64,000 bases of DNA. Source: an uncultured Pelagibacteraceae bacterium (GTDB lineage: Bacteria > Pseudomonadota > Alphaproteobacteria > Pelagibacterales > Pelagibacteraceae). Location of the stretch: assembly GCA_902534735.1 (NCBI GenBank), contig CACARD010000005.1, positions 32,737 through 96,736 of the forward strand. The letters run 5' to 3'. How positions within the stretch are numbered: position 1 is the first letter of the stretch; every line of letters starts with the position of its first letter. The notes beneath the pieces are model-generated. The model did not search any database. It was not told the DNA's origin and was given only the letters and a program-made list of their open reading frames with translations. Made by a program: the position numbers and the translations under genes. Of the stretch, positions 22,851 through 24,744 are shown in pieces.

Positions 22851-23447
22851 TTAATTTTCTATTAAAAATATACCTAAATGAGAGTCAAGATTTTTATAAT
22901 TTAAATTTGATTTATTTATTTCTGAAATTCGACTTTTTTTTAAAGCGATAGACTTAAATATTTTAATATTCTTACTACTGCAAAAATTATAAAAATCTTT
23001 AATTGTGCACATATGTAAATTTGGTGTATTGTACCATTCATGAGGTAAATTTTCTGTTACAGGCATTGTGCCTTTAAACAATAATTGTAGTCTAACTCTC
23101 CAGTAACCAAAATTAGGTATAGTAACAATTACTTTTTTTCCTACTTTTAGTAATTCATTAATTACTAATTCAGGATTAAGGAAAGCTTGTAATGTTTGGC
23201 TTAAAATAACGTAATCAAAAGACGATTTAGGAAATTGTTTTAAATCGCTTTCAGCATTCCCCTCAATTACAGTTAATCCCTTTGATAAACAATTTTGAAC
23301 TTTTTCTTTAGAAATTTCTAATCCACGAATATCTTTAGTTTTGTTTTCTTGTAAAAATTTCATCAAGTCTCCATTGCCACAACCGACATCTAGAACTCTA
23401 GTATTTTCCTCTATCAAATTAGATATAATGTTAAATTCTTCTTTCAT
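22851..23447 (-). CDS. metW: methionine biosynthesis protein MetW
   Basis: [36 protein letters not shown]; overlaps the end of metX. Confidence 0.94.
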
Positions 23448-24564
23448 TTATAACTTTGTAGGTTGAATTAATATAATCGCCAAGTGTCTTTAGGAAACTT
23501 GGAACATCAAGCAAAAAAGAGTCATGCCCCTTATCAGATTCTATTTCAACAAATCCGACATCTGCACCAATAGAATTTAGTGCCATAACTATTTCTCTAT
23601 TCTCCGATGTTGGATACAACCAATCTGATGTAAATGATATTACGAAAAATTTTGTTTTAGTTTTTTTGAATGCATCAGATAAATTTCCTTTGTGCTGTTT
23701 GGATAAGTCAAAATAATCCATTGCACGAGTTATATATAGATAACTATTAGCATCAAATCTATCAACAAATACAGATCCTTGGTATCTAAGATAACTCTCA
23801 ATTTGAAAATCTGCCTCAAATCCATATCTTAGGCTATCCCTATCTTGCAATTTTCTTCCAAATTTTTCCTGCAATCCTTTTTCAGAAAGATAAGTAATAT
23901 GTGCTGCCATTCTTGCTACTGCTAAACCTTTGTCAGGATTTAATTTGTAATTACTATAAAATCCATTTTCCCACTTACTGTCAGCCATAATTGCTTGTCT
24001 TCCTAATTCATTAAAAGCTATGTTTTGTGCTGAGTGACTAGATGTGCAAGCAATCGGTATTGCGAGTTTTGCTTTATCTGGAAAATTGGAAACAAATTGT
24101 AGCACTTGCATTCCACCCATTGAACCACCTACTACAGCAAAAAGTTTTTCAATTTCTAAATATTTAATTAGCTCATATTGAGCGTTAACCATGTCGTTAA
24201 TAGTTATAATTGGAAAATCAGTTCCTATTTGTTTACCAGTAGTCTCATTTATTGTGCTAGGTCCGTAAGATCCCATGCAGCCTCCAATAACGTTTGCACA
24301 AATCACAAAAAATTTATTTGTATCAATTGGCTTATTTTCTCCAACAACATAACTCCACCAACCATCTTTATTAGTTATTGGGTTTTTTCCAGAAACATAT
24401 TGATCTCCAGTCAAAGCATGGAAAACTAATATTGCATTACTTTTTTCACTGTTTAATTCCCCATATGTCTCATATGCTATTGGAAAGTTATTAATTTCCT
24501 TACCACAATCCAATTTAAGGGGATTTGATATAATTATTTTTTTTGTATCAATATTCTTATTCAT
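23431..24564 (-). CDS. metX: homoserine O-acetyl/succinyltransferase
   Basis: [48 protein letters not shown]. Confidence 0.95.
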
Positions 24565-24596
24565 AATAATTGTACTGATTGAATTGTGAGAAAAAA

Positions 24597-24648
24597 AACA
24601 TTTTAGCGGTTTTTTTATAGCGCTCGCAATTCAGTATAAATCAGCGCA
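24597..24648 (-). ncRNA. SAM-II riboswitch aptamer in metX 5' leader
   Basis: Minus strand TGCGCTGATTTATACTGAATTGCGAGCGCTATAAAAAAACCGCTAAAAtg closely follows the known SAM-II pattern (GCGCUGAUUUA…AUUGC-AGCGC…GCUAAAA). P1 stem GCGCT(24647-24643)/AGCGC(24624-24620). Lies directly upstream of metX, a canonical SAM-II target. Confidence 0.88.
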
Positions 24649-24744
24649 TGCAGGTTTTACTTCAAAGGAATTTATATGTCAAATATTGCTCAATTAATTA
24701 TTGTTTTATCTAGTTAAAAGACTATTTATAGTGAAATATTTACT

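What the first reader, a model, noticed from the sequence alone, without database searches (positions are those of the whole stretch)
24565..24640. Candidate expression platform: alternative stem mutually exclusive with SAM-II P1
On the minus strand UGAAUUGCGAG (24633-24623), inside the aptamer loop/P1 3' side, is complementary at 10 of 11 positions to CUCACAAUUCA (24590-24580), about 16 nt before the metX AUG. Forming this stem would disrupt P1 (it uses 24623-24624). The segment after the aptamer has a U8 run and no purine-rich Shine-Dalgarno near the aptamer, so the usual SAM-II model of direct SD capture is not obvious here. I infer an alternative-fold switch near the start codon or a U-tract-associated termination event.
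Basis: partly seen in the sequence, partly recalled or inferred. Interest (0 to 1): 0.6.

Follow-up and report, generated by a model that had tools for sequence, protein, structure and literature searches.

The report
Riboswitch-unfolding arm before the metX gene
In SAR11, the commonest group of ocean bacteria, the RNA sensor for the metabolite SAM in front of the methionine gene metX is followed by a strictly conserved, imperfectly complementary strand that can unfold the sensor, an on/off design different from the textbook one for this sensor.

Summary
The metX leader carries a degenerate SAM-II aptamer. UGAAUUGCGAG (24633-24623) is complementary at 10 of 11 positions to CUCACAAUUCA (24590-24580). 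In one sequence this is weak evidence (1.8% of shuffles reach it), but the downstream arm is present in all 220 genus-level metX leaders found by the aptamer core alone (171 distinct). Four relatives with the same core have a terminator instead of the arm. Paired arm positions hardly change. The one mismatch changed at least 13 times, never to G, which would strengthen the helix from about -12 to -17.8 kcal/mol. A second helix (24645-24640 with 24579-24574) and an A-tract/U-tract helix make the ligand-free leader one hairpin.

I read this as a tuned anti-aptamer: a strand-exchange platform for SAM-II with neither Shine-Dalgarno nor terminator hairpin. The arm lies after the U8 tract, so it cannot control termination there. 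I favour translation: SAM binding frees U8 plus arm to fold onto the A-rich start region. The modelled effect is about 2.5 kcal/mol (133 of 161 leaders), but its sign depends on the ribosome footprint assumed. Output level, sign and SAM binding are untested. New variant of a known kind.

The parts
24677..24682 (-). -35 box TTGACA, 35 nt before the first base of P1, so the transcript probably starts at P1
   Evidence: TTGAC[AT] begins 35 nt before P1 in 162 of 169 leaders; the simple promoter scan did not list it because the -10 hexamer is weak
24643..24647 (-). P1 5' strand GCGCU of the SAM-II aptamer
   Evidence: RF00521 match 24657-24582, 23.7 bits; sequence
24620..24624 (-). P1 3' strand AGCGC
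   Evidence: RF00521 alignment
24602..24607 (-). conserved GCUAAA, P2 (pseudoknot) 3' strand with the SAM contacts
   Evidence: RF00521 alignment; invariant in A1
24623..24633 (-). helix A 5' strand UGAAUUGCGAG, lying in the aptamer loop and P1 3' side
   Evidence: sequence; in MFE and centroid of the leader
24580..24590 (-). helix A 3' strand, the anti-aptamer arm CUCACAAUUCA, with its mismatch at A24587
   Evidence: present in 220 of 220 leaders of this type; mismatch never G, energies -9.2 to -12.4 kcal/mol
24609..24616 (-). A-tract plus C (AAAAAAAC), 5' strand of the inner A/U helix in the ligand-free fold
   Evidence: MFE; pair count
24591..24599 (-). G plus U8 tract, 3' strand of the inner helix; released when the aptamer is closed
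   Evidence: sequence; U-run of 5-9 (mode 8) in 169 leaders
24640..24645 (-). helix B 5' strand GCUGAU (overlaps the P1 5' strand)
   Evidence: MFE
24574..24579 (-). helix B 3' strand AUCAGU, ending 9 nt before the AUG
   Evidence: MFE; helices of 7 bp or more in 37 of 138 distinct spacers against 10.3 expected
23431..24564 (-). metX, homoserine O-acetyltransferase, the regulated gene; AUG 24564-24562
   Evidence: NF001209, 511 bits
22851..23447 (-). metW, next gene, overlapping the 3' end of metX
   Evidence: TIGR02081, 235 bits

Best explanation
The metX leader is a SAM-II riboswitch whose expression platform is a strand exchange, not Shine-Dalgarno capture or an intrinsic terminator. Ligand-free (computed): once the arm is transcribed the leader refolds into one long imperfect hairpin. 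Helix A (UGAAUUG.GAG with CUC.CAAUUCA) destroys the SAM pocket and P1, helix B takes the P1 5' strand, and the A-tract pairs the U-tract. Helix A always keeps a defect, so SAM can win. Output (inferred, least certain): the released U8 plus arm folds onto the A-rich, Shine-Dalgarno-free start region of metX and lowers translation, so high SAM turns metX down. Shown: the arms, their conservation, the mutual exclusion, the tuned mismatch, the alternation with terminators. Inferred: SAM binding, order of folding, sign, level of output. Sub-probabilities: functional anti-aptamer 0.85; translation as main output 0.4.
For: Arm conserved in 220 of 220 leaders selected without reference to it; four relatives with the same aptamer core have a terminator and no arm, none has both, and arm versus no arm is one change on the metX tree. 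Conservation follows pairing: mismatch position changed 13 times, columns after the arm 7-24 times. Mismatch is A, U, C or absent, never G; all nine arm variants give -9.2 to -12.4 kcal/mol, the unseen perfect arm -17.8. Leaders that do hold that G carry a two-base insertion (L126, L227, L267) or a shifted mismatch (L093). Base after the arm is A or G only, opposite U in 168 of 169. Helix B enriched. Leader folds as this hairpin, z = -3.0; it overtakes P1 once the arm is out. Closed-aptamer state costs about 2.5 kcal/mol more to open -4..+20, in 133 of 161 leaders, and the cost vanishes when U8 plus arm is masked. No strict Shine-Dalgarno in 169 leaders.
Against: No two-sided covariation is possible because the aptamer side is invariant. 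SAM binding was not tested, and the match is below Rfam's gathering score. The sign of the translation effect depends on the footprint: for -16..+12 the ligand-free fold is the harder one in 124 of 164 leaders. The occlusion is mostly generic: swapping in other coding starts changes it by only 0.45 kcal/mol. In the window itself the closed-aptamer MFE leaves U8 and arm unpaired and hides the AUG in a hairpin of spacer and early codons. P2 was treated as a mask, not modelled. Related sequences are not independent.
Confidence: 0.6

Rival explanations
1. Same strand exchange, different output: SAM exposes a G-poor, pyrimidine-rich single strand (U8, arm, spacer) that loads Rho or is cut by RNase E; the ligand-free hairpin hides it. 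High SAM then lowers metX mRNA.
For: The stretch from U-tract to AUG is 66% U+C and only 4% G, median 34 nt. It gives the expected sign and lets the arm act after it is made. Riboswitch control through Rho and RNase E is known for other classes (own knowledge; the library holds papers on it).
Against: 34 nt is short for a Rho site; no rut or cleavage-site model was tested; A/U-rich exposed strands are everywhere in SAR11.
Confidence: 0.2
2. The SAM-bound pseudoknot abutting the U8 tract is itself an intrinsic terminator; the arm only unfolds the aptamer in transcripts that escaped.
For: P2 pairing runs into the first U residues; U-run is 7-9 here against U5-6 at that place in the four terminator-type relatives; sister platforms terminate transcription; the literature calls P. 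ubique SAM-II transcriptional (PMC5069961).
Against: No terminator-like hairpin; the outer part of P2 is only 3-4 A/U-rich pairs; a ligand-stabilised terminator in the exit channel is considered unlikely (PMC10907184); it leaves the strict conservation of the arm unexplained, since the arm is made after U8.
Confidence: 0.13
3. The sign is inverted: the ligand-free hairpin, ending 8-16 nt before the AUG, blocks the ribosome and SAM opens it, making an ON switch.
For: With a -16..+12 footprint the ligand-free ensemble is harder to open in 124 of 164 leaders.
Against: Illogical for a methionine biosynthesis gene; every known SAM riboswitch represses (own knowledge); for -7..+12 and -4..+20 the order reverses.
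Confidence: 0.08
4. The arm is conserved for another reason (protein or small-RNA site, or common descent) and its complementarity to the aptamer is incidental.
For: No two-sided covariation; a single-sequence match of this quality occurs in 1.8% of shuffles.
Against: Conservation follows pairing position by position: the unpaired base drifts but avoids G, and the base after the arm toggles only A/G opposite U. Variant arms re-create the helix with shifted defects. Flanks diverge freely.
Confidence: 0.05

Closest known systems
SAM-II riboswitch (Rfam RF00521), direct Shine-Dalgarno occlusion type (metX, PDB 2QWY; PMC10907184)
   Same: Aptamer core GAUUU, UUGC, GCUAAA, P1, and the metX gene
   Different: No Shine-Dalgarno in P2 or near the AUG; a conserved downstream anti-aptamer arm; weak outer P2; score below gathering
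SAM-II with intrinsic terminator (S. meliloti metZ, PMC9373788; sister SAR11 genera and bhmT leaders in this genus)
   Same: Aptamer strand pairs a downstream strand in the ligand-free state
   Different: There the downstream strand is part of a terminator; here the terminator hairpin is absent and the U-tract lies before the exchange strand
Tandem SAM-II/SAM-V of bhmT in Ca. P. ubique (PMC11508383)
   Same: Sequence downstream of the SAM-II domain prevents it from answering SAM in the full-length RNA
   Different: Linker ends in a terminator-like hairpin with poly(U) and a second aptamer; different arm
HMP-PP (thiS) riboswitch with terminator-embedded aptamer (PMC6478431)
   Same: The ligand-free leader is one extended hairpin that maximises pairing and excludes the aptamer
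   Different: There the hairpin is a terminator; here no U-tract follows it
Strand-exchange group of riboswitches (PMC10907184)
   Same: Competing strand, two mutually exclusive folds, imperfect helix so the ligand can win
   Different: SAM-II/V is listed there under direct occlusion; the output here is not a known terminator or Shine-Dalgarno sequestration

Membership tests
SAM-II riboswitch (RF00521) | Conserved SAM-contact core GAUUU / UUGC / GCUAAA | tested here: met
   Alignment to RF00521 over model 1-79; invariant in 20 diverse leaders
SAM-II riboswitch (RF00521) | P1 helix | tested here: met
   GCGCU/AGCGC, invariant
SAM-II riboswitch (RF00521) | Pseudoknot P2 including its outer part | tested here: inconclusive
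   GC/GC inner pairs kept; outer part reduced to about C-G, U-A and one or two A-U pairs; in the window the last G-U stretch is imperfect
SAM-II riboswitch (RF00521) | Score at or above the Rfam gathering threshold | tested here: not met
   23.7 bits against 36; a curation threshold, not a biological feature, and most SAR11 metX and bhmT members also fall short
SAM-II riboswitch (RF00521) | Binds SAM | not testable with these tools
   No binding data for this leader; the bhmT SAM-II of P. ubique is reported at 1.2 uM (PMC5069961)
SAM-II, Shine-Dalgarno occlusion type | Shine-Dalgarno within P2 near the start codon | tested here: not met
   0 of 169 leaders with GGAG, GAGG or AGGA at -18..-4; P2 strand ends about 35 nt before the AUG
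SAM-II, intrinsic terminator type | G+C-rich hairpin followed by a U-tract | tested here: not met
   No terminator-like site; 0 of 220 arm-bearing leaders
SAM-V riboswitch (RF01826) | Match to the SAM-V model | tested here: not met
   Not among matches up to E = 5 in this leader
Strand-exchange riboswitches | A conserved strand able to displace aptamer helices | tested here: met
   Helix A and helix B, mutually exclusive with P1 and the pocket
Strand-exchange riboswitches | Ligand shifts the balance and changes expression | not testable with these tools
   Needs probing and reporters

The most novel reading that the evidence does not exclude
A SAM-II expression platform without terminator or Shine-Dalgarno: the aptamer's own 5' half is the guard strand for an anti-start strand (U8 plus arm), which SAM releases onto the start codon, with a selected mismatch holding the two folds in balance across a whole genus of SAR11.
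Probability: 0.35. Interest if true: 0.66.

Novelty: new variant of a known kind. Interest (0 to 1): 0.52.

Why it matters
SAM-II is the textbook case of direct ribosome-site occlusion. Here, in a very abundant marine lineage, the same aptamer seems coupled to its gene by a tuned strand exchange next to a start codon without a Shine-Dalgarno. Sister genera use terminators with the same aptamer, so the locus shows one expression platform replacing another. The single mismatch that never becomes a pair offers a one-base test of how natural riboswitches are balanced.

Tried and rejected
(1) Arm pairing with AUG plus codon 2 (AUUCA x UGRRU) as cause of the strong AAY/AGY/GAY second-codon bias: rejected, sister leaders without the arm also start MN/MS. 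(2) U-tract as tail of a hidden terminator: rejected, no hairpin. (3) Two-sided covariation for helix A: not obtainable, the 5' side is invariant. (4) A-tract and U-tract lengths as covariation: only r = 0.24. (5) Simple occlusion of -16..+12 as the SAM-off mechanism: wrong sign. (6) Aptamer core plus arm in viral contigs: none. (8) Poiata 2009 (SAM-V/tandem) is not held, so a prior description of this arm there cannot be excluded. (9) Helix B in its UUAGC form could also pair the P2 strand GCUAA, as in the sister terminators; UCAGC and AAUUAGC favour GCUGA(UU).

Full report
WHAT WAS CLAIMED. A stem between UGAAUUGCGAG (24633-24623) and CUCACAAUUCA (24590-24580), exclusive with P1 of a SAM-II aptamer before metX, read as an alternative-fold switch or U-tract termination.

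OBSERVATION. Coordinates and letters are exact. The gene is metX (NF001209, 511 bits), followed by metW. The aptamer is SAM-II by best match (RF00521, 23.7 bits, E 0.0028) but below the gathering score of 36. In one sequence the complementarity is weak evidence: 1.8% of shuffles reach 10/11. The leader on its own folds far better than shuffles (z = -3.0), with this stem in MFE and centroid; with coding sequence and upstream flank added the excess is lost (z = -1.0).

CONSERVATION. I fetched metX leaders by MetX similarity only: all 109 readable ones carry the arm right after a U-run. A scan of GTDB representatives, together with the other loci, with the aptamer core alone gave 233 matches: 220 with arm and no terminator, 4 with terminator and no arm, 3 with neither (A/U-rich hairpins, metW-type), and 6 chance matches without an aptamer. 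The named ones with the arm are nearly all uncultured Pelagibacteraceae. Distinct leaders: 171, of which 169 have a readable start. The arm lies 10-20 nt before the AUG in nearly all, most often 16-17.

PAIRING FOOTPRINT. The 5' side cannot vary (it is the SAM pocket), so two-sided covariation is impossible, and the pair count shows none (95.2% of cells paired, against at most 67% for slid versions). But the 3' side evolves as a strand of this helix would. On a metX tree of 117 loci with the pattern CUCNCAAUUC the nine paired columns are fixed by that choice, but only 3 of 120 arm-bearing loci on the tree fall outside the pattern; the mismatch column changed 13 times, the columns after the arm 7-24 times. 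The mismatch is A, U, C or missing, never G, although A-to-G is one transition; with a one-in-three chance per change, 0 of 13 has probability about 0.005 (my arithmetic, treating changes as independent). Energies of all nine arm variants lie within -9.2 to -12.4 kcal/mol at 20 C, the unseen perfect arm at -17.8. The four leaders in which that G exists carry another defect: CUCGC[AU or AA]AAUUC with a two-base insertion (L126, L227, L267) or CUAGCAAUUC with the mismatch shifted (L093). The base after the arm is A or G in all 169, opposite U in 168. I read this as selection for a competitor strand that is strong but not too strong.

MORE OF THE FOLD. Downstream of the arm a second strand, usually U[CU][AG]GC, pairs GCUGA(UU) of P1/L1: helices of 7 bp or more in 37 of 138 distinct spacers, 10.3 expected; 56 of the 88 spacers holding NNNGC fit UYRGC. 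The A-tract linker pairs the U-tract. Together these make the ligand-free leader one hairpin. A -35 box sits exactly 35 nt before P1 in 162 of 169 leaders, so the RNA probably starts at P1. In stepwise folding P1 and the A/U hairpin dominate until the arm emerges, then the long hairpin wins (-26.1 against -16.7 kcal/mol at 20 C, P2 and SAM not counted).

COMPARISON WITHIN THE ORDER. Sister genera carry, before metX, SAM-II followed by a textbook terminator (GCCCAG UUUAG CUGGGC U9) and then AUG, its loop complementary to the P2 strand AGCUAAA. A second family, and the bhmT leader in the same genus, also use terminators. Among the SAM-II leaders read here only this genus has the U-tract before the exchange strand and no terminator hairpin. 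The arm therefore stands where the relatives have the terminator; on the tree arm versus no arm is a single change.

HOW IT WORKS. Shown: two mutually exclusive folds, one of them conserved as a tuned competitor. Inferred: SAM binding, co-transcriptional order, sign. Because the arm is made after the U8, it cannot decide termination there; its effect must come later. Opening the start region -4..+20 costs a median 7.5 kcal/mol with the aptamer closed and 5.3 in the free ensemble; the difference vanishes when U8 and arm are masked. So released U8 plus arm can mask a start region that lacks a Shine-Dalgarno, giving SAM-off. The effect is mostly generic (swapping coding starts changes it by 0.45 kcal/mol) and changes sign for -16..+12; in the window itself the closed-aptamer MFE instead hides the AUG in a hairpin of spacer and early codons. 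I give translation 0.4, Rho or RNase E exposure 0.2, U8 termination 0.13, inverted sign 0.08.

KNOWN OR NEW. The metX SAM-II of Ca. P. ubique was noted in 2009 (PMC2704228) and SAM-II was called transcriptional in 2016 without metX data (PMC5069961). A review files SAM-II/V under direct occlusion (PMC10907184). I found no description of this arm in the held literature; Poiata 2009 was not available. It is a new variant of expression platform for a known riboswitch class.

Noticed in passing
L162 301-375 (-); also L163, L164, L167-L170, L173, L174, L182-L193, L196: Sister-genus metX leaders hold the SAM-II sequence that (from memory) was crystallised as 2QWY, the textbook Shine-Dalgarno occlusion case; in its genome it is followed by an intrinsic terminator (GCCCAG..CUGGGC U9) and then the AUG, with the terminator loop UUUAGCU complementary to the P2 strand AGCUAAA. 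This suggests transcriptional control.
   Followed up: partly
L141 245-328 (+) (G000:C7:5044-5127); also L142-L145: A second SAM-II-like element (25-27 bits, below gathering) with GGAGG in its 3' strand, directly before a 55-aa ORF (MKIIIQSIKNYFKSKKDRG...) without a Pfam match over cut-off.
   Followed up: partly
L194, L198, L199: metX leaders of two other genera: a hairpin just before the AUG with an arm complementary to aptamer loop L1 (GGUUAAA x UUUAACC; AAAUCG x CGAUUU), possibly other anti-aptamer designs.
   Followed up: no
L165, L251, L290: SAM-II before metW-type genes (one record named Fonsibacter) followed by hairpins with A-runs and U-runs, in L165 of A and U only.
   Followed up: no
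L147 178-242 and 278-353 (-): bhmT leader: SAM-II with terminator and then SAM-V (58 bits, above gathering), the known tandem arrangement.
   Followed up: partly
L216, metX start region: AUU stands where close relatives have the AUG start codon (AAAAAUAUUAUUGGUAAUUUUGG); sequencing error, other start codon or downstream start.
   Followed up: no
725 gene starts from the window and loci L200 and above: Shine-Dalgarno-like motifs are rare before these genes (10% against 5% in shuffles), so most starts seem independent of it; longest-ORF starts were used, so this is noisy.
   Followed up: partly
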